Origin: an uncultured bacterium
Lineage (GTDB): Bacteria > Patescibacteriota > Patescibacteriia > UBA1558 > GWA2-36-10
Reading direction: 5' to 3'
Length of the DNA stretch: 10,034 bases
NCBI GenBank assembly: GCA_937912185.1
Contig: CALDOH010000096.1
Coordinates: forward strand, 1 to 10,034
Below, in pieces: positions 289-10,023 of the stretch. How positions within the stretch are numbered: the first letter of the stretch is position 1; each line of letters begins with the position of its first letter. The position numbers and the translations under genes were made by a program. Below the pieces are notes generated by a model. It saw nothing but the letters and a program-made list of their open reading frames with translations. It searched no databases and had not been told where the DNA came from.

Positions 289-827
289 TGACTTTAATAG
301 AAGAAGCAGCTAAAATCATGCTAGCTGCTCACCAAGATCAAAAACGAAAAACCGACGGTTCTCCCTATATCGTCCACCCAACGGCAGTCGCTACTAAGTT
401 GTCTGATTTGGATTTTGATGATGCTGTAGTAGCTGCTGCCCTAGTACATGACGTACTTGAGGACACAGATTTCCCTGAAGAAAAATTGCGAGAAAAATTA
501 GGTGATGAAGTTTGGACTATTGTCAAAGCTCTCAGTGAAGACCAAGCTTTGGAGTGGGAAGAACGTAAACAAGCCTACATTGATACTATAGCTAAGTCCT
601 CTGATAAAATAAAAGCTGTTTCTATTGTCGATAAAATTCACAACTTAGAATGTCTAATAGCTGGCCACGCTCAAATGGGTCCCTCTATCTGGGGAAAATT
701 CAATCGTGGTAAAGAGAAAAAAATGTGGTTTGAAAAAGAATTGCTAAAAGTATTCAAAAAAACCTGGTCACATGACCTGGTCGATGAATATGAAAAATTA
801 ATTGAGCGAGCTGAGCAACTCAATTAA
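288..827 (+). CDS. Stand-alone HD-domain hydrolase, small alarmone hydrolase-like (SpoT/MESH1 type)
   Basis: A 179-residue protein starting at the ATG that overlaps the upstream stop (TAATG); an in-frame TTG at 234 would lie inside the upstream gene and is less likely. It carries the metal-binding HD motifs of the (p)ppGpp 3'-pyrophosphohydrolase domain in order: His30 in YIVHP, His54-Asp55 in LVHDVLEDT with Glu58-Asp59, and Asp115 in VDKIHNL. Basic residues at 19-21 (KRK) and the following DGSPY match the nucleotide-binding start of the family. There is no synthetase, TGS or ACT domain, so this is not a full RelA/SpoT; the length is almost that of animal MESH1. In known relatives the enzyme removes the 3'-pyrophosphate of (p)ppGpp with Mn2+ in the cytoplasm; MESH1 also acts on NADPH. 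The substrate here is inferred. The C-terminal third (from about residue 124) is less conserved, with a basic KFNRGKEKK stretch. A broader HD-phosphohydrolase role is the alternative. Confidence 0.85.
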   Translation: MTLIEEAAKIMLAAHQDQKRKTDGSPYIVHPTAVATKLSDLDFDDAVVAAALVHDVLEDTDFPEEKLREKLGDEVWTIVKALSEDQALEWEERKQAYIDTIAKSSDKIKAVSIVDKIHNLECLIAGHAQMGPSIWGKFNRGKEKKMWFEKELLKVFKKTWSHDLVDEYEKLIERAEQLN

Positions 828-828
828 T
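797..828 (-). terminator. Possible intrinsic terminator hairpin at the convergent gene ends
   Basis: A perfect 10-bp inverted repeat, attaattgag (797-806) and ctcaattaat (819-828), encloses a 12-base loop. Read on the minus strand, the hairpin follows the end of the kinase gene and runs straight into TTTT then CATATT, which fits a weak rho-independent terminator for the long minus-strand string. The stem has only two G-C pairs, so it would be marginal. Read on the plus strand it is followed, about 20 bases later, by a T-rich stretch (848-860), so a bidirectional role is possible but weaker. The structure lies within the last codons of the HD hydrolase and spans both stop codons. Confidence 0.35.
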
Positions 829-1912
829 GTAATTTCTCTTGTCTCTTTTTTTCTTCTTCATCACGAAGCGAATCTCGCAACCCTCTATAGTTGGCCATCA
901 TTCCTTCATCTAGCTTTTTATCACTCAAGACAGACTCTAACACATTGGTCCAAAGATCAATGCGTTTTTTATTCAAAATTTCTAAATTTCCACTAGCTCG
1001 AGATAAAGTATTTGCATAATACCAAATAAGCTCCGTCAATCTAAAAACCCTCATCAAACGAAGTGACAAAAACTCCTGCTGTCCCCGGTTGTCTTTGACG
1101 TAGCCCAACAGAGCTTGCTCTAGGTCTGGATTATAAAGTGTCATAAAATTTATAAACCTAGCCCAAGACTCATATTTGTTACCAAAACGTAGAGAAGAAT
1201 GGTCTAAGAGGTAAATATCATTTCCTGAGATACGTAAATTATGTGGTACAAAATCCCAATGGGTCAAAAAATCTGAATATAGATCAATAGTAACTGAGTT
1301 TTTGCCAAGAAAATCACGAGCCGTTGCCAAGAGCGTCTTTAGCTTTTCCTGCCCTGACAAAATGGTGAGTATTTGCTCTGAATATTTATCAAAATTATTT
1401 AAGTATTGCTGAGCATCCCAAATACCAAAGGTCCTAGATATAATACTAGCGTGCTCATAGGTCGTAGCCTGGACTGCCTCTTGAGCTTCAAAAGACTTGA
1501 GCGCCAAGAAAAATTGTTCCTCCAGTGGCCGAGAAGTAAAAGTGGCCTCTTGTTCAATGAATTCCGTAATAAAAATTGTATGAGCACCTGACTCTACAAA
1601 AAGAATCTCTTGAGGATAGAAAAATATATGATAAGCAAAATTTATTTTGGCCAAAACCTGGCGGCCACTATACTCAGCTCTTATCTCCTCTATCATTTTA
1701 GGATCTGAGCTGGCCTTAATAATCACTTTTTTCTTATCACTTAACCTATGACCAATCAACACTAATTTTTTGTCACCAGAGACATAGCGTTCGCCACCAA
1801 TGTGTATCTGCTCCTTATCCAAAGAAAAACCAAGCTGCTCCAAAATAGGACTGACAGCCCTAAGCTCAGTCTCTCTATACTCCTGCCATAATTTTTGGTG
1901 ATCACTAGCCAT
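824..1912 (-). CDS. Aminoglycoside phosphotransferase/choline kinase-fold small-molecule kinase
   Basis: A 362-residue soluble protein with the core of the APH/choline-kinase branch of the protein-kinase fold. The catalytic loop HWDFVPHN (His218, Asp220, Asn225) matches Brenner's HxDxxxxN, and LLDHSS (Asp237) takes the place of the metal-binding DFG Asp. Lys66 in KKVIIKAS is the likely ATP-binding lysine of the N-lobe, with FITEFIE (about 114-120) as the hinge. It is followed by RFGNKYESWARFINF and a helical C-lobe ending in a highly charged tail (DEEEKKRQEK). The family transfers ATP phosphate to small molecules such as sugars, choline or aminoglycosides; the substrate is unknown and antibiotic resistance should not be assumed. 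The start is ATG one base after the upstream glycosyltransferase stop (TAACATG), so the pair is probably co-translated and may act on the same glycan or lipid precursor. Its stop shares TTAA with the convergent HD gene. Confidence 0.75.
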   Translation of the reverse strand: MASDHQKLWQEYRETELRAVSPILEQLGFSLDKEQIHIGGERYVSGDKKLVLIGHRLSDKKKVIIKASSDPKMIEEIRAEYSGRQVLAKINFAYHIFFYPQEILFVESGAHTIFITEFIEQEATFTSRPLEEQFFLALKSFEAQEAVQATTYEHASIISRTFGIWDAQQYLNNFDKYSEQILTILSGQEKLKTLLATARDFLGKNSVTIDLYSDFLTHWDFVPHNLRISGNDIYLLDHSSLRFGNKYESWARFINFMTLYNPDLEQALLGYVKDNRGQQEFLSLRLMRVFRLTELIWYYANTLSRASGNLEILNKKRIDLWTNVLESVLSDKKLDEGMMANYRGLRDSLRDEEEKKRQEKLH

Positions 1913-3233: not shown

Positions 3234-3758
3234 TCAAACCCGATAAAAGCTTATTTTGGCTCCACTGCCTGGAAATTCAAAAACTTTCTCCGGCTGGACT
3301 CCATGAATTTTGTCGTTTAAAACTATTACCAAAGTACCCGGCTTGGCTTCTAGGCTTATTTTTTGCCAAGCACTTTGGACGACCTTATCAACCAAAAATA
3401 AATACAACACATCCGCATCACTCAAGTCTACCTTAAAAAAATCCTTACCCTTAATTTTTGCTTTTGATTTTTTACGAATTGCCTTGAACTGCGCGTACCA
3501 ACAAATGATTGGCGAAAGTTCATAACCAACTAGTTTGGCTGGTTGATATTTTTCTGCTCTAAACAAAAATTCAGCTGTACCACAACCAAGCTCATATATA
3601 TTATCCGTTTTCTTGATATCTAGATTAGCAAATACTTTTTCCAAACGACTATCCTTGGATTTTATGTGTGGTACTCGAGTAAAATAATAAACCACTATAT
3701 TATATAGCAAAAATAGAATCACTATTAAACCTAAACTTAGAAAAAAATAAAACATCAT
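3234..3758 (-). CDS. Membrane-anchored class I SAM methyltransferase, FAM173 (lysine methyltransferase)-like
   Basis: A 174-residue protein with one N-terminal membrane segment (about residues 4-25, FYFFLSLGLIVILFLLYNIV) and a short Rossmann methyltransferase domain. Motif I is YELGCGTAEFL (55-65), which binds S-adenosylmethionine; the acidic motif II is VGYELSP (Glu80), and DADVLYLFLV (114-123) forms the motif IV strand. The order membrane helix, ELGCG, GYEL-P, WYAQFKA is strikingly like the FAM173 family, whose eukaryotic members (ANTKMT, ATPSCKMT) methylate a lysine of a membrane protein. Basic residues after the helix (R28, K33, K35) suggest a cytoplasmic catalytic domain. The substrate is unknown; an integral membrane protein such as the ATP synthase c ring is a guess from homology. 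Two ATG codons occur in tandem; the first (3758) overlaps the upstream stop as ATGA, implying translational coupling. It is the last gene before the 180-bp gap. Confidence 0.8.
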   Translation of the reverse strand: MMFYFFLSLGLIVILFLLYNIVVYYFTRVPHIKSKDSRLEKVFANLDIKKTDNIYELGCGTAEFLFRAEKYQPAKLVGYELSPIICWYAQFKAIRKKSKAKIKGKDFFKVDLSDADVLYLFLVDKVVQSAWQKISLEAKPGTLVIVLNDKIHGVQPEKVFEFPGSGAKISFYRV

Positions 3759-4651
3759 TTACTAAAATAACCAATTATATAACTAGTAGTATTTTGATCT
3801 CCTCCCAAAATTTTAGCTGAATTACTATGATCAATCAATTCAAAATCATTGGTCTCCGACAAACGCATGGCTTCCAATAGAACTATCAAAGCTGGCGGTG
3901 AATCTAGATAATCACTGTTTAAATTACTCAGCAAAAAATAATCTCTATTATAAATAGCCTCTAGGGTTATTTGATCATTTCGCTCTGCTGTCTCTAAATC
4001 AAGATAGTGAGAAAAATCTATTGAGCTCAAGATAAGCGTCTTTTTATCTTCCAGCAGTAGACTAATTTTTTGAGCTAACGCCAAAGACATACTTTGATCA
4101 TGACGAGAAGTCAAAATTATTGGTGCTACTTTGGCCTCGGGAAAATAGTATTTTACAAATGGAATAATTGTTTTGATAGAATGCTCTGGTATAAAATTTT
4201 CCTGATCATAAACCACTGCCCCACTCTCCGTCAAATCATCTAAAATACTTTCAGCTTGATAAACTGGACCAAGAGATGTCTGCCAATAAGTCTCAGCACT
4301 AATAGCTGGCCAAGCAGCCACATCACTGTGCTTAGGACCCAAAATTATAAAAGTATCTACACTCTGTTCTTTGGCTAGTTGAGCAAAAAACTTGGCCAAA
4401 TGATCGCTAGCTATTTCATGATGAGGCAAGGTAGCCCCCACTAGCCTATCTCTTATTTTGAACTTTTCTGGTTGGGCAATCGCTCTATAAAACAAGTTTT
4501 CATCAAAGTCTACTTTAATTGGCTCAAGTTCTCTAAAAGCCCTGGCTTCATCAAAATGTTCTATAGCCTGATCATTTCTGTTGTAAAATAAAATTACACC
4601 AGCGATAATGAGTATCACCAATGTAATTATTATTGGTTTAAGCTTAATCAT
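3755..4651 (-). CDS. Membrane-anchored MEMO1/AmmeMemoRadiSam system protein B-like
   Basis: A 298-residue protein: a signal-anchor helix (about residues 7-23, IIITLVILIIAGVILFY) followed by a MEMO-family domain of the LigB extradiol-dioxygenase fold. Family motifs appear in order: VGATLPHHEIA (71-81), FIILGPKHSD (101-110), the WQTSLGPV segment (123-130), EHSIKTIIPFVKYY (156-169) and LSSIDFSHY (208-216). Likely metal ligands are His77 or His78, His108, Asp212 and His215. The position of the conserved Cys near the C-terminus of human MEMO1 seems to fall in LDSPPALIVLLEA, where no Cys is present. Lysines before the helix and acids after it predict an extracytoplasmic domain, unlike the cytosolic human protein. 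The biochemical role of the bacterial family is not settled; AMMECR1 and radical-SAM partners are not in the window. The ATG overlaps the macroglobulin stop by four bases (ATGA), and its own stop overlaps the methyltransferase start the same way. Confidence 0.85.
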   Translation of the reverse strand: MIKLKPIIITLVILIIAGVILFYNRNDQAIEHFDEARAFRELEPIKVDFDENLFYRAIAQPEKFKIRDRLVGATLPHHEIASDHLAKFFAQLAKEQSVDTFIILGPKHSDVAAWPAISAETYWQTSLGPVYQAESILDDLTESGAVVYDQENFIPEHSIKTIIPFVKYYFPEAKVAPIILTSRHDQSMSLALAQKISLLLEDKKTLILSSIDFSHYLDLETAERNDQITLEAIYNRDYFLLSNLNSDYLDSPPALIVLLEAMRLSETNDFELIDHSNSAKILGGDQNTTSYIIGYFSK

Positions 4652-7600
4652 GGACGGCTAATATTGACCTGACTGCCAGTAGAATAATCAAAGATTGAAT
4701 TGTCCTTGTAGTGTTGAACTAAAATTGGCTCAACTACATACTGCCCTGGATTGACCACTCTGGCATAATAAACAAAATAATCTGAACAGTTGCTATCCCA
4801 ACCTCGATTGACATTAAATTTTATACGTTGGCCGTCAATGTTGTAAGGATAACGGAAACTACAACCATGACTATTGTACATGTTGCGACTATAAGGCCTG
4901 GTCACCGGTGCCATACCACTAGGCATCAAATCTGTCACCTGATAATAACCCTCGACTGCATCTCCGGCTATCCCTGGATAGATCCTCACTTCTACCAAAT
5001 CATTTTCCTTGAAGCTATTTGTCTTTTGACCATCAACATAGTACTCCTTGCGAATATTCAATTGTGGACTAGAATCAGCTGGCATAGTAACCATCGGCAC
5101 TTCATAGGAACTAAGCAATCCAACCTTGCCTTCAATGTCAGAAAATTTAATGTCCTTGAGCTCTTCTGGTGTAACTGACAATTTATAGCTACCCCCCTTG
5201 CTCAAAGTTTTCTCAATCTTCTGACCCCCTACTTCAACCTTGAACTTAACTTCACCTGGATTAAGGTTTGGCAAAGCTCCGACGACATAACTTAATTTTT
5301 CTAAATTTATCAAAATATCTTTGGTATGATTGTCCTGTACATACTGCCAAAGCGATTCATGGTAAGGATCATTAATAGCCCCAGACAAAATTGCGGCCAA
5401 AGAAGTGTGAGCTAAATGATCGTCTTTGTCACCACCGGTATTTAACCTCGTATACATATCTCCCATTTCTTCACCATATTCACTCATGATATCCAAATAC
5501 ATTTTACGAGCCAGCTCACCGTCACCTATCTTTTGGGCTCCCAAAGCGATGTATAATCTTTCTTTGACCGTGAGACCACCTAGCTTGGCAAAATTCTGAA
5601 GAGGAAGCAAAACCGGCTCACCCAAACTAGCTAAGCCAAACAGAGCAACGGCGACTTCTTCTTGATTGGATTCATTGCTGTTATAGGTGATATAGAAATA
5701 ATTAGCTAAATTGATAGCATCAAACTCTTCGCTAGCTACATAAGCCAAACGAGCACTCAACTCTAGCTCGGCATCGCTATATGGCAAAAGAGCAATACCA
5801 CCATTATTCAATTGATACGTATCAGACTCAAACTTACCTTGATAGTAAGAATCCTCATCAAAATAACTTTTGAGCATTTTTCTAGCCAAGACACGTGATA
5901 GTTCTTGATCTACTCTATCACCATAGGTCCAGGACAATCTCCTAAGCTGCCGATATACCATGCCTTGATTTCTATCACTAAAAGTAAGGTTCGTTCTAAA
6001 CTGATCACTACCTTCTGGCTTTAGGTTTTTGTCTAATACATAAAAATTCTGCACACTCTCTCTGAGTCGTGACTCGACTACTTCTATTGGCTTGATGACT
6101 GTATCTTGATAATTTCCAAAATCAACTGTAGTGCTAATCTTGTGTTGGCCTGGGGTCAATTGAGGTAGGTCAATGTAATTTGGCTGAAAGGCTCGCCCAC
6201 TCTTTTCACTTTGAGAAAAATTAAGCGTGTCAGCACTCATACTAAAAGCTACATTATCACCTGAGCTAAGAGCAGTACCATAGGCTCTCAATTTTATAGT
6301 TGGTTTATCAGCTATTAGGTACTCTTTAGTATAAGAGGCTTCTACAAAAACTGGTAGAGAAACATTTATGTTGGCGGTATTAGAGCCAGCAAATAAAGTA
6401 TTGCTGACAGCCTGAGTAGTGATGCGCCATGAAGTGATATTGTCTGGTAATGTCAGACTAGTACTAGCCTGACCATTGGAATTGGTATCCAGTGAAGTAA
6501 ATAAAGCATTATCAACAAACTCCTCTCTAGGACCACCCTTATCATTGTGAACATAGATGCCGTTGGCAATATAAGTATTATATGGCGAGATGGTTAGATT
6601 ATAAACTTTCACTAATTCATGTTTAGCCTCGATAGAGTCAATTAATGTTTGTTTACCATCTTCATCTATTAAGTAATCTCCAACTTTAGCCTCACCAATC
6701 ATCTGCCAAGCACCGTTTACAAACACTCTATGCTCTGGAGTCACTTTGAGTTTGTTGTTGATTATCAGATAACCGTCAACTGTGTGAGAAACTATATTCA
6801 CCACATCAGCCTCTACTAGTCGATGACTTTTTTCATCAGCAAAGGTGAGTACCTTGTCGCCAGTTTTGACATCTTCAATATTTTTTTCACTACCATCAGC
6901 CATCTTGATCTTTGTATCAGCTAGGAAACAACCGCCGCCTTCAGCCATAGGAGCAGAACCAAAAGCCTCGGCTGAACGATGAGAACTGTAGAAAGTCAGC
7001 TCACCAGCACTCATATAGACGTTGTAAATACTAGCCAAAGTATCTACCTGTTCATTTCTTAGTTGGTAATAAGCTTCATCAACCAAATTTATGTTAACGC
7101 CGGCTTTAACCGGACCACCATTTTCATCAGTCACCTTAACTGAAATATTTACTTCTTCACCTGGTACATAATCTTTTTTATCAGTTTGAATGTCGATATT
7201 AAGACGACGGCTTTCTTTGTCAAAAGCTACTAAATTGCCAGTAATGCCTCCATAACCCCAAGTATTATAAGAGGTATTATGATAAGTTGTACCATCAAAC
7301 CAAACTCCCTTGGCATAAATATTTGGTATGTATTGCTCCTTAAAAGTAAAGTTGTGTTCTGGTTGATTGCTGGTTTCGTGTTCTATCAAACCTCTTTGCA
7401 AATGATAATAAAGATAATTTTTTTGTTCTGTTTCTGGTAACAATACTTCATTATTTAAAAATTCAAATTCAACCTGTTCACCAATAGCAAAATTACTATC
7501 ATCGGCATTTTTAAATTGAAGCTTATAATAATCATTATCAGCAGACCTAGTATAGCGAGAATATAGATAACGTTTTTGAACATCGTGACGGCCACTGCCA

Positions 7601-10023
7601 TCATCTATAACTACTCTGACATAATAACTCTTATCTTTATTTACCGTTAGATTATAAACATGCTCCCCATTTCCGTCAGTTGTACCAGAATATTCTGTCA
7701 GTGGTGTTTCAATTCTGTTGTACTTATATTTTTTATGAGTTATCTTGTTGATAAAATCATAATACTCGCCCGTTTCTTCTTTCTCATAAGTAACTTCAAC
7801 TATCCCTGCTCGCAAAGATTTACCAACAGCTGGCCCACCCTTGGGACTATAATCTTCACCACTGTTTATCTTGTTTAGATCTATATTATAAACCGAAGTA
7901 GTGATGGTTGCTTGGTTACTGTTTTTTTCTTTAGAAAATTTTACAGCAGAACCAATCTTTGGCCCATAGACACTAGCATAAGCATAAGTAGTGATCTCGC
8001 CTTCTTCTGATTTGCTTGGAGCAATATAAACATTTGTACTCTTGGGATAATAACAATAACTATCTGTATTACCACAGTCAGTATATGTGGTTGGCAAGGA
8101 TATATGTGCCTTGCCCAAATCATCGGTAACAATATCCATTTTCTTGCCATTATAAGAGTAGGATAAATCGAGATCAGCTACTGGCGTACCCTCAAAAAAA
8201 CTACTAGTGATATCTACCTCTACATTATCTCCAGCAAAAACTGCCTTTTTCTCTGGCAAAGCCTCTAGCTTATATGCTGGCTTGGTATAACTTTGAACAC
8301 TTATATATTTACTATAGACAACTTCATCGTCTACCAAAAGCTGTAGACTATAACCACCGGGAGTTAAATTTTTCAAGCGCATATTACCAATACCGGTATT
8401 ACTAGTATCAAGCTCCACCAACTCTTCGGCAATAGGAATCTGCTCATTATAATAATTATAATAACGACTATTGGACAACCTGACTTTTACTTGGCCATTT
8501 ATATGCTCGCCACTTCTTGGTTTTATAAAAGCCCAGAAATTTATTACATCATCTGGCTGATACATGGTCCGGTCGGTATAAAAATGGTGCCAATAAAAAT
8601 CTGTGTTGGAACTAGAAGAAAAATAGCTTCGATATAGCCAAAAAGGCACCACCATAACTGAGCTACCGGATTCAACTTTTAGATATTTATCTTTTTTATC
8701 ATTCTCCTCATTATTAATACCAAAGGCTTGCTCACTACTAAAGGTGGCTACACCATCTGAATCTGTAGTGGCAGAAACATTTGAATTTGCCACTTTGATG
8801 CTGGCTCCAGTCACCGGACCCTTGGTGTCTAGGCTATTTACCCAAACCAAAGTATCTGTCTTGGTGATACTAGAATAAGCTGAAATATTGCTAACTTGGA
8901 TATAAGCCTGACTAAAACGACCATTATACTCAGCCTCAATCAAATAAAATCCTTTGTCTAATGCCTCTGGTAAGACCAGATACTTAGTATTTTCGTATTC
9001 TGTCAAAGGCAAATTATAACTAGCAACATCGGTCAGTTTTGAACGGTCAAATTTGTGAGCGTCACGAGAATAAGTAGCCCAATAAGGGATGTGATCGCCG
9101 CTCTGTAAAGCTTCTATAAAATGATCCGCACTATTGAAAGCAAAAATCTTTACTGGAAATTCACTTTGAGTAACATTATAACTTCGCATAGCAAAGGCTG
9201 GCTCCATAGTATCAGGAAATTCATTGAAATTGACACTAAAACCAAAACTAGAACTAGAAATTTGACCTCTTTGCTCATTGGTCGGACTAGTTTCAAAAGA
9301 AAATACATAATCCTCAGCCAAGGAAGTGTCACTTCCTTCAACAGTCACCCCTTTTTTCATAGTAACAGTATAAACCGTACCTGGATCTAATTTCTTTGGT
9401 ACGAATACTAAAGTTCGTTTATGTTTTTCATAATGACCATCTAGAGCTGGCTCAATACTAATCTTATCTTCATAGTTGGCAAAATTTTCATGGCTAAAGG
9501 TCAACTCAATACCGGTATCAGTTGGTACATAAGTGGCTTGATTGCGGGGTAGGGTGTGTAATACCTTGAATTGATCTTTGACTTGAAAAGCCCAAGAATA
9601 ATTTCTTTTCTGCTCGTCTCCTTGATCATCTATATATTTTGAATCAATTGCCAAACGATAGACCTGTCTAGCTTCCAAAGGCGTCTTGGGAATAACTTTG
9701 AAGTTATGTTCATCAATTTGAGTAATTTCATAGTCTACTGCTGGAGAAAAACTAATGTTGTCAGCCAGTGAATCAAAACTTTTGATTGCGTCTTTACTCT
9801 TGATCATAAAGGTTGTACCAGCAGCTATGCCAGTACTGTCGATTGAGGCTGCTTCAACTTCAAAATTGTCCTGAGCATAAGCTGTATTGATAAGTAGCTT
9901 TGAAAAATCACCAGGAGTATCGGGAACCAATCCTTTATTAAACCCAAAATAAAAATAGCCCAACAAAACAGCCGCAATTAGAAATACCGCAATGATGGGT
10001 GTCCAAACTTTTGCTTTAAACAT
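4648..10023 (-). CDS. Alpha-2-macroglobulin-like surface protein with an embedded Hint (intein-like) domain
   Basis: A complete 1791-residue protein; an in-frame stop just upstream (10029-10027) makes ATG 10023 the earliest start. A signal anchor (residues 8-28, no lipobox Cys) is followed by two SbsA/Big_5-type Ig-like domains (about 54-148 and 149-245), then macroglobulin domains. MG2 is marked by TDRTMYQPDDVINFWAF (483-499). The bait-region domain is at about 940-1031 (DYVPGEEVNISVKV and LVDEAYYQL). A Hint domain occupies 1032-1160. The A2M domain starts at PREEFVDNALF (1165-1175) and continues with LPDNITSWRITTQAVS; an alpha-toroid follows (about 1340-1600), and an MG10-like end (about 1660-1791, TDLMPSG). 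The thioester CxEQ is missing; its site reads YGDRVDQELSR around 1367-1377. Bacterial macroglobulins are envelope protease traps, often beside PbpC, which is not seen here. The protein should face outside the membrane. It has only five Cys: C650/C657 and C1721/C1746 as likely disulfides, and Cys1032 of Hint. It leads the three-gene overlapping set. Confidence 0.92.
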   Translation of the reverse strand: MFKAKVWTPIIAVFLIAAVLLGYFYFGFNKGLVPDTPGDFSKLLINTAYAQDNFEVEAASIDSTGIAAGTTFMIKSKDAIKSFDSLADNISFSPAVDYEITQIDEHNFKVIPKTPLEARQVYRLAIDSKYIDDQGDEQKRNYSWAFQVKDQFKVLHTLPRNQATYVPTDTGIELTFSHENFANYEDKISIEPALDGHYEKHKRTLVFVPKKLDPGTVYTVTMKKGVTVEGSDTSLAEDYVFSFETSPTNEQRGQISSSSFGFSVNFNEFPDTMEPAFAMRSYNVTQSEFPVKIFAFNSADHFIEALQSGDHIPYWATYSRDAHKFDRSKLTDVASYNLPLTEYENTKYLVLPEALDKGFYLIEAEYNGRFSQAYIQVSNISAYSSITKTDTLVWVNSLDTKGPVTGASIKVANSNVSATTDSDGVATFSSEQAFGINNEENDKKDKYLKVESGSSVMVVPFWLYRSYFSSSSNTDFYWHHFYTDRTMYQPDDVINFWAFIKPRSGEHINGQVKVRLSNSRYYNYYNEQIPIAEELVELDTSNTGIGNMRLKNLTPGGYSLQLLVDDEVVYSKYISVQSYTKPAYKLEALPEKKAVFAGDNVEVDITSSFFEGTPVADLDLSYSYNGKKMDIVTDDLGKAHISLPTTYTDCGNTDSYCYYPKSTNVYIAPSKSEEGEITTYAYASVYGPKIGSAVKFSKEKNSNQATITTSVYNIDLNKINSGEDYSPKGGPAVGKSLRAGIVEVTYEKEETGEYYDFINKITHKKYKYNRIETPLTEYSGTTDGNGEHVYNLTVNKDKSYYVRVVIDDGSGRHDVQKRYLYSRYTRSADNDYYKLQFKNADDSNFAIGEQVEFEFLNNEVLLPETEQKNYLYYHLQRGLIEHETSNQPEHNFTFKEQYIPNIYAKGVWFDGTTYHNTSYNTWGYGGITGNLVAFDKESRRLNIDIQTDKKDYVPGEEVNISVKVTDENGGPVKAGVNINLVDEAYYQLRNEQVDTLASIYNVYMSAGELTFYSSHRSAEAFGSAPMAEGGGCFLADTKIKMADGSEKNIEDVKTGDKVLTFADEKSHRLVEADVVNIVSHTVDGYLIINNKLKVTPEHRVFVNGAWQMIGEAKVGDYLIDEDGKQTLIDSIEAKHELVKVYNLTISPYNTYIANGIYVHNDKGGPREEFVDNALFTSLDTNSNGQASTSLTLPDNITSWRITTQAVSNTLFAGSNTANINVSLPVFVEASYTKEYLIADKPTIKLRAYGTALSSGDNVAFSMSADTLNFSQSEKSGRAFQPNYIDLPQLTPGQHKISTTVDFGNYQDTVIKPIEVVESRLRESVQNFYVLDKNLKPEGSDQFRTNLTFSDRNQGMVYRQLRRLSWTYGDRVDQELSRVLARKMLKSYFDEDSYYQGKFESDTYQLNNGGIALLPYSDAELELSARLAYVASEEFDAINLANYFYITYNSNESNQEEVAVALFGLASLGEPVLLPLQNFAKLGGLTVKERLYIALGAQKIGDGELARKMYLDIMSEYGEEMGDMYTRLNTGGDKDDHLAHTSLAAILSGAINDPYHESLWQYVQDNHTKDILINLEKLSYVVGALPNLNPGEVKFKVEVGGQKIEKTLSKGGSYKLSVTPEELKDIKFSDIEGKVGLLSSYEVPMVTMPADSSPQLNIRKEYYVDGQKTNSFKENDLVEVRIYPGIAGDAVEGYYQVTDLMPSGMAPVTRPYSRNMYNSHGCSFRYPYNIDGQRIKFNVNRGWDSNCSDYFVYYARVVNPGQYVVEPILVQHYKDNSIFDYSTGSQVNISRP
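6544..6930 (-). other. Hint domain, BIL type A-like, inserted in the macroglobulin bait linker
   Basis: Residues Cys1032-Asn1160 of the macroglobulin (129 residues). Block A is CFLADTKIKMADGSEKNIED, with Cys as first residue after a Gly-Gly-Gly. Block B is KVTPEHRVFV with the TxxH pair Thr1095/His1098, followed by GDYLIDEDG. The end is VYNLTISPYNTYIANG followed by IYVHN, giving the His1159-Asn1160 needed for Asn cyclisation. There is no room for a homing endonuclease. The next residue is Asp1161, not Cys, Ser or Thr, so classical splicing is not expected; this matches type A bacterial intein-like domains, known to cleave at either end and sometimes to splice by another route. Removing the domain would leave a continuous linker EGGG-DKGGPREEF, so the insertion looks clean. 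All catalytic residues look intact, so it is probably active. Confidence 0.9.

What the first reader, a model, noticed from the sequence alone, without database searches (positions are those of the whole stretch)
6544..6930. A complete Hint/BIL domain inside the bait region of an alpha-2-macroglobulin
The macroglobulin carries an intact intein-like domain (Cys1032, Thr1095-x-x-His1098, His1159-Asn1160) precisely between the bait-region domain and the conserved A2M domain. In known macroglobulins this is where an attacking protease cuts to trigger the trap. Here the protein has its own self-processing module at that place. Predicted products are an N-terminal piece of 1031 residues, a 129-residue Hint and a C-terminal piece of 631 residues, or a partly cleaved form. 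I do not know of a described macroglobulin with this architecture; that is my recollection only, not a search result.
Basis: partly seen in the sequence, partly recalled or inferred. Interest (0 to 1): 0.85.

Follow-up and report, generated by a model that had tools for sequence, protein, structure and literature searches.

The report
Self-cutting domain inside bacterial protease trap
A large surface protein resembling our own protease trap carries, just where an attacking protease would normally cut it, a complete domain of the kind that cuts itself out of proteins; many relatives in tiny, mostly uncultured bacteria share this, so such traps may be set off or finished by their own chemistry.

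Summary
Window 4648-10023(-) encodes a 1791-aa alpha-2-macroglobulin (A2M); residues 1032-1160 (window 6544-6930) are an intact Hint domain with a bacterial intein-like (BIL) fold. It is not a one-off: two homologue searches, both with queries that contained the Hint, list 240 distinct proteins (queries included), all with the Hint in the bait loop, mostly from Patescibacteria. One group (this one) lacks the A2M thioester; the other has it in 112 of 120. The four catalytic residues are invariant, and the Hint is under purifying selection like its host. Hint-less homologues (Bacillota, Chloroflexota, other Patescibacteria) have a continuous, usually Gly-rich loop there. The +1 residue is Ser/Thr in 4 of 240 and never Cys: by sequence a type A BIL, not a canonical intein. 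Most likely the domain excises itself after export, opening (or partly rejoining) the bait loop without a protease. Activity, products and trigger are untested. That the Hint replaces a lost thioester is not supported: thioester-bearing A2Ms have it too. My paper searches found no A2M-Hint report. New variant of a known kind. In passing: a conserved A2M-Memo operon (55 of 74 loci).

The parts
4648..10023 (-). A2M-Hint gene, 1791 aa, with a hydrophobic N-terminal segment (signal anchor by eye), Big_5, bMG3/MG2, A2M_BRD, Hint, A2M, TED-like and C-terminal parts
6544..6930 (-). Hint / BIL domain, residues 1032-1160 (129 aa)
6928..6930 (-). Cys1032, block-A nucleophile; Gly1031 just before it is the predicted N-side cut
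   Evidence: Cys in 120 of 120 listed relatives; Gly-1 in 118 of 120
6730..6741 (-). Thr1095-x-x-His1098, block B
   Evidence: His 120 of 120, Thr 118 of 120 with 2 Ser
6544..6549 (-). His1159-Asn1160, block G; predicted C-side cut after Asn1160
   Evidence: both 120 of 120; TIGR01443 intein_Cterm 21.5 bits, cut-off 15.6
6538..6543 (-). Asp1161-Lys1162, +1 and +2: no Cys/Ser/Thr at +1; Lys conserved
   Evidence: +1 is D/E/Q/N in 114 of 120 and Lys lies within +1..+3 in 120 of 120; in the thioester group 113 of 120 and 119 of 120
6931..7002 (-). N-side bait linker, residues 1008-1031, ending in a Gly-rich AEGGG motif; predicted disordered
   Evidence: pLDDT under 50 at model residues 104-125 = 1008-1029; conserved flank
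6334..6507 (-). start of the conserved A2M domain after the bait, residues 1173-1230
   Evidence: PF00207
5266..5967 (-). TED-like helical domain, about residues 1353-1586, with Arg1370 where the thioester Cys would be
   Evidence: AlphaFold2; Arg1370 in 120 of 120 and no CxEQ motif in the domain
3755..4651 (-). Memo-like protein, membrane-anchored by sequence; operon partner (4-bp overlap) of the A2M, not of the Hint as such
   Evidence: PF01875 E=7e-28, TIGR04336 E=1e-32; synteny

Best explanation
An A2M of a Patescibacterium carries a type-A-BIL-like autoprocessing domain in its bait loop. Proposed course: the anchored protein is exported and folds; Cys1032 attacks the Gly1031 carbonyl and forms a thioester; Asn1160 cyclises and frees Asp1161; the 129-aa Hint leaves. 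The bait is thereby opened without any protease, giving an anchored N-terminal chain (1031 aa) and a C-terminal chain (631 aa), with some re-joining when the new amino end attacks the thioester. Shown: location, fold, invariance of the catalytic set, purifying selection, continuous loop in Hint-less relatives. Inferred: that it reacts, in which order, that cutting outweighs re-joining, and that the cut causes the conformational change that protease cuts cause in E. coli A2M.
For: BIL fold and sequence match. Catalytic residues invariant in both lists and in the wider set of 75 Hint+ rows: Thr and His 75 of 75, Cys 75 (one of them misaligned, read), His-Asn in 74, the other being masked with X. 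Hint dN/dS 0.03-0.14 in the 9 of 14 close pairs where dS could be computed, as in the flanks (0.07-0.18); 5 pairs were saturated. In 20 of the 23 Patescibacteria genomes (of 379) with PT-HINT above cut-off it sits in an A2M. The domain ends where human A2M resumes at 721-730, just after the human bait (690-728, recalled), and the flanks align to E. coli A2M 853-1097, a stretch that includes its disordered bait 923-942 (PMC4498604, passages). No +1 nucleophile: for such BILs cleavage products dominate (PMC4031507, passages; PMC7664689, passages).
Against: No activity data. The joined flanks resemble the uncut loop of Hint-less Bacillota homologues, which suits splicing just as well. In thioester-bearing relatives a cut on maturation would waste the thioester, so constitutive cutting makes little sense there. 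The +1 residue is not random (mostly D/E/Q) and a Lys at +2 is almost invariant; the model does not explain this.
Confidence: 0.5

Rival explanations
1. Intein-like splicing: the Hint removes itself and re-joins the bait loop (amine-driven type A BIL splicing), so the mature A2M is whole and the Hint is a nearly silent or regulatory insert.
For: Hint-less homologues have a continuous Gly-rich loop at the spot; of 60 Hint-less rows 37 have AExG(G), and in 24 of those the next residue is Glu, where filled genes have the +1 Asp/Glu. Patchy presence at one site: 10 state changes on the A2M tree, at least 7 forced by well-supported branches. It would spare the thioester in the thioester-bearing relatives.
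Against: +1 Cys/Ser/Thr in only 4 of 240 although one codon change could supply it; no endonuclease (129 aa); in reports on BILs cleavage dominates. Hint and A2M histories are partly congruent (r=0.68), and lateral moves of the Hint between A2M groups are not established (AU p 0.034 and 0.089, 0.276).
Confidence: 0.27
2. Triggered or conjugating device: the Hint thioester is held until contact, thiol, pH or another nucleophile triggers it; the N-terminal half is then handed to an amine (host surface, own wall, or the conserved Lys at +2), or, in thioester-bearing relatives, self-cutting arms the TED thioester without a protease.
For: Surface-anchored proteins of a group with many episymbionts; Hint in thioester-bearing A2Ms (112 of 120 listed); Lys near +2 in 239 of 240. 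Hedgehog shows that a Hint can pass its thioester to an outside nucleophile (PMC7664689, passages).
Against: Nothing here tests a trigger or a conjugate; a Lys near the C-junction also occurs in Hints of other proteins (3 of the 9 examined) and may belong to the Hint itself.
Confidence: 0.13
3. The Hint is a folded, inert spacer in the bait loop, a relic that no longer reacts.
For: No activity data exist; the bait loop tolerates inserts of many lengths.
Against: All four catalytic residues invariant in 120 of 120 and again in the second list; relics lose them. dN/dS like the host domain.
Confidence: 0.07
4. A pre-toxin Hint that releases a C-terminal toxin, as the name 'polymorphic toxin-type HINT domain-containing protein' on several database entries suggests.
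For: The Pfam model is called Pretoxin HINT, and several listed relatives bear that name.
Against: What follows the Hint is the rest of an A2M (A2M, TED-like and C-terminal domains), shared with Hint-less homologues.
Confidence: 0.02

Closest known systems
Type A bacterial intein-like (BIL) domains, such as CthBIL4 (PDB 2lwy) and TthBIL2 (6y75/6tmm)
   Different: host is an A2M and the site is its bait loop; +1 is mostly D/E/Q with a nearly invariant Lys at +2; activity unknown
Bacterial alpha-2-macroglobulins (E. coli YfhM/ECAM, Salmonella A2M)
   Same: MG domains, bait position, TED-like and C-terminal domains
   Different: a 129-aa self-processing domain in the bait; no thioester in this member
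Complement C3/C4/C5, with the anaphylatoxin domain inserted at about the same place (place of that domain recalled)
   Same: C3 and C5 alpha-chain alignments to the model begin about 9 residues after the Hint (model residue 578-579 to C3 767, C5 770)
   Different: anaphylatoxin is an unrelated fold released by an outside convertase; here the insert itself has cutting chemistry
A2M-like proteins of Patescibacteria in print (Vampirococcus lugosii, PMC8080830; hydrothermal Gracilibacteria, PMC9793634)
   Same: large surface A2M of a patescibacterium, proposed to resist host proteases (passages)
   Different: no Hint mentioned in the passages seen; I did not check those sequences for one

Membership tests
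Hint superfamily / BIL | Hint fold | tested here: met
Hint superfamily / BIL | Cys1, block-B Thr-x-x-His, C-terminal His-Asn | tested here: met
Type A BIL | no Cys/Ser/Thr needed at +1 (definition as in PMC4031507 and PMC9185962, passages) | tested here: met
   Asp1161 here; Ser/Thr in 4 of 240, Cys in none
Type A BIL | self-cleavage and/or splicing activity | not testable with these tools
   needs expression and mass spectrometry
Class 1 intein | +1 Cys, Ser or Thr | tested here: not met
   Asp1161
Large, endonuclease-bearing intein | homing endonuclease inside | tested here: not met
   129 aa, Hint core only
Polymorphic toxin pre-toxin Hint | Hint directly before a C-terminal toxin domain (recalled) | tested here: not met
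   A2M, TED-like and C-terminal A2M parts follow
Bacterial alpha-2-macroglobulin | MG, bait-region and A2M domains in order | tested here: met
Bacterial alpha-2-macroglobulin | TED with CxEQ thioester motif | tested here: not met
   TED-like helices present but Arg1370 at the site; no CxEQ there in 120 of 120. Hence 'A2M-like without thioester'
Bacterial alpha-2-macroglobulin | traps proteases | not testable with these tools
   needs biochemistry
Hedgehog (Hog) domain | sterol-recognition region after the Hint (recalled) | not tested

The most novel reading that the evidence does not exclude
A protease trap that springs itself: in a widespread group of Patescibacteria A2Ms the bait is opened by a built-in Hint domain rather than by the prey's protease. 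In thioester-less members the Hint's own Gly-Cys thioester may serve as the covalent coupling point; in thioester-bearing members self-cutting may arm the TED thioester, turning an immune-type trap into a self-arming covalent adhesin toward host or neighbour cells.
Probability: 0.15. Interest if true: 0.92.

Novelty: new variant of a known kind. Interest (0 to 1): 0.7.

Why it matters
A2M and complement proteins are switched by an outside protease cutting the bait or releasing an inserted domain. A recurrent bacterial A2M family with its own cutting or splicing domain at that very spot would be a protease-independent way to switch, or to mature, this fold. It gives a BIL domain a plausible working context and offers a concrete, testable surface mechanism for bacteria of which many are episymbionts. 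It also warns that the database name 'polymorphic toxin-type HINT' is misleading for these proteins.

Tried and rejected
Hint as substitute for the lost thioester: rejected as a general rule. All four combinations occur: Hint with thioester (L032, L033; 112 of 120 listed), Hint without (this family), neither (among others L020-L022, L065-L070 and the Bacillota loci), thioester without Hint (L036, L037, L039, L044, L045, L047-L051).

Lateral transfer of the Hint between A2M groups: first suggested by L032, whose Hint differs from main-group Hints at 44-53% of positions while its A2M core differs at 78-83%, and by a tree in which Hints of the thioester-type clade do not group (AU p 0.089 for 4 rows, 0.034 for 6). 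A larger sample did not reject one clade (87 rows, p 0.276; three rows labelled TEplus there, L033, L034, L062, were put in by the core-tree clade, and L034 and L062 show no CxEQ motif). Not claimed. The A2M tree is FastTree with long branches meeting; the fragment L016 was wrongly counted as Hint-less (11 changes); without it 10, at least 7 forced.

Regex slips: one search missed the Hint of L005 (129 residues); mis-measured L138 (128); L062's Cys is shifted by one column. L080 has masked bases at the end of its Hint; L132's ORF is split, its loop read as empty. In one search the thioester count by Hint state uses trimmed rows and misses five thioesters seen; the one CxEQ-like hit in the list (P0088, residue 720; also P0040 residue 12) is not at the TED site.

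Paper searches: A2M+Hint domain 0, A2M+BIL 0, intein+A2M 5 unrelated by title (listing only), BIL+CPR 0, 20 listed of 383 with no 'Hint domain' in any of the 20, A2M+CPR 4, AmmeMemoRadiSam+A2M 0, intein+Patescibacteria 2 (listing only). Only open-licence PubMed Central papers are held. The original BIL papers (Amitai 2003, Dassa 2004, Aranko 2013) are not among what I could read; they are known here through passages of reviews.

Full report
What is there. The minus-strand ORF 4648-10023 is a 1791-aa A2M-like protein. Pfam places Big_5 at 151-245, bMG3 at 377-460 and MG2 at 480-528 (both just under their cut-offs), A2M_BRD at 840-988, PT-HINT at 1039-1161 and A2M at 1173-1230. The window's genome (866 kb in 163 contigs, 89% complete) has one PT-HINT and one PF00207 match, both this gene. 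Its nearest named relatives are Candidatus Parcubacteria MAGs, 71% identical (L072, L073).

Not a one-off. A homologue search with residues 960-1290 gave 499 proteins at E<=1e-3; the 120 listed, query included, all carry PT-HINT with A2M domains. A second search from a thioester-bearing relative gave 1095; its 120 listed all contain Cys...His-Asn in the bait. The two lists share no sequence (240 distinct). Both queries contain the Hint, so the listings favour Hint carriers and do not measure frequency. A less biased view: of 379 Patescibacteria genomes searched with the family profile, I count 20 with the Hint in the bait, one cut by a contig end in the Hint (G057), 26 A2M-bearing genomes without it, and two unresolved (G139, G360); that profile too was built from Hint carriers. 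PT-HINT is above cut-off in 23 of 379 genomes, in 20 of them inside an A2M. Among 80 named loci (best 80 of 292; one search pattern lay in the Hint), 45 carry the Hint. Most of these are titled as Patescibacteria lineages, one as candidate division WOR-1, and some only as 'bacterium'. The 35 without it are 28 Bacillota, 2 Chloroflexota, 3 Uhrbacteria, 1 Falkowbacteria and 1 unclassified Patescibacterium.

Constraint. In the 120 proteins: Cys1032, His1098, His1159 and Asn1160 120 of 120, Thr1095 118 plus 2 Ser, Gly-1 118, Hint length 129 in 120 of 120. +1: Asp 58, Gln 27, Glu 27, Ala 3, Asn 2, Gly 2, Thr 1. In the second list: Asp 46, Gln 45, Glu 20, Ser 3, Gly 3, Asn 2, Ala 1; lengths 129 (92), 128 (26), 134 and 144. 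A Lys lies within +1..+3 in 120 and 119. dN/dS of the Hint is 0.03-0.14 in 9 pairs (0.06-0.10 in the three with dS below 1), like the flanks; 5 of 14 pairs were saturated.

Empty sites. Of 60 Hint-less rows, 37 have AExG(G) at the spot; the next residue is Glu in 24, Gly in 9, Asp in 3, Ser in 1. Filled sites read AE-x-GG, then the Hint, then D/E/Q-Lys-Gly. Cutting out the Hint precisely would leave a loop like the Hint-less ones. The Lys is not seen after that Glu in Hint-less loops (by eye). A conserved motif in a bait region is itself odd, since baits are usually described as disordered.

History. On a tree of the A2M core, Hint presence needs 10 changes, at least 7 forced. Hint and A2M distances correlate (r=0.68; 0 of 999 permutations as high) but less than A2M pieces with each other (0.80-0.83). 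Long shared history with losses, several gains, or both remain open; lateral moves are not established.

Mechanism. Type A BILs lack the +1 nucleophile, make the N-side thioester and cyclise the Asn; cleavage dominates, and splicing can follow by attack of the freed amine (PMC4031507, passages). E. coli A2M is activated when the cut bait is untethered (PMC4498604, passages). Together these suggest opening of the bait without a protease. Against constitutive cutting: in thioester-bearing relatives it would expose the thioester with nothing to trap; there, splicing or a trigger is more sensible. I therefore give cutting 0.5, splicing 0.27, triggered or conjugating 0.13, inert 0.07, toxin release 0.02.

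Thioester. This family has Arg1370 at the site in 120 of 120; the second list has GC[VTIMNS]EQ in 112 of 120. Hint and thioester are uncoupled in both directions.

Known and new. A2Ms in Patescibacteria are in print as possible shields against host proteases (PMC8080830, PMC9793634, passages); BILs are known. I found no report of the fusion in the searches listed under Tried and rejected. Both parts are known kinds; the combination and its place are new as far as I could search, hence 'new variant of a known kind'.

Noticed in passing
window 3755-4651 (-) and loci L072-L151: Conserved A2M-Memo operon: a same-strand Memo homologue starts within 1.6 kb downstream of the A2M in 55 of 74 loci with at least 1 kb of room (31 of 44 with Hint, 24 of 30 without), in Patescibacteria, Bacillota and Chloroflexota. 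50 of 56 have a hydrophobic N-terminal stretch, and His77, His108, His157, Asp212, His215 are kept in 54-56 of 57 aligned. No paper holds AmmeMemoRadiSam and macroglobulin together.
   Followed up: partly
L032, L033, L063: Memo homologues also lie beside A2Ms of the distant, mostly thioester-type clade; in L032 a short ORF between Memo and A2M looks sigma-factor-like by eye only.
   Followed up: no
P0121-P0240, L032, L033: A second, thioester-bearing A2M group with the Hint in the bait; includes Peregrinibacteria, Shapirobacteria, Daviesbacteria, Roizmanbacteria, Moraniibacteriota and a Margulisiibacteriota entry by name.
   Followed up: partly
window 6538-6540 (Lys1162): A Lys within three residues after the Hint is kept in 239 of 240 listed proteins and was not seen after the matching Glu in Hint-less loops; role unknown.
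   Followed up: partly
L112-L151, Hint-less Bacillota: The bait loop of Hint-less, thioester-less Bacillota A2Ms often keeps an AExGGEGG motif, strange for a bait region.
   Followed up: no
L052-L057: Related Hints in other large Patescibacteria proteins (334 to over 4000 aa ORFs); three of the nine Hint or intein proteins examined there (L054, L056, L057) have His-Asn-Lys at the junction.
   Followed up: no
window 824-1912 (-): A 362-aa ORF without any Pfam match at E<=0.01, kept next to a glycosyltransferase gene in L073 (69% identical).
   Followed up: no
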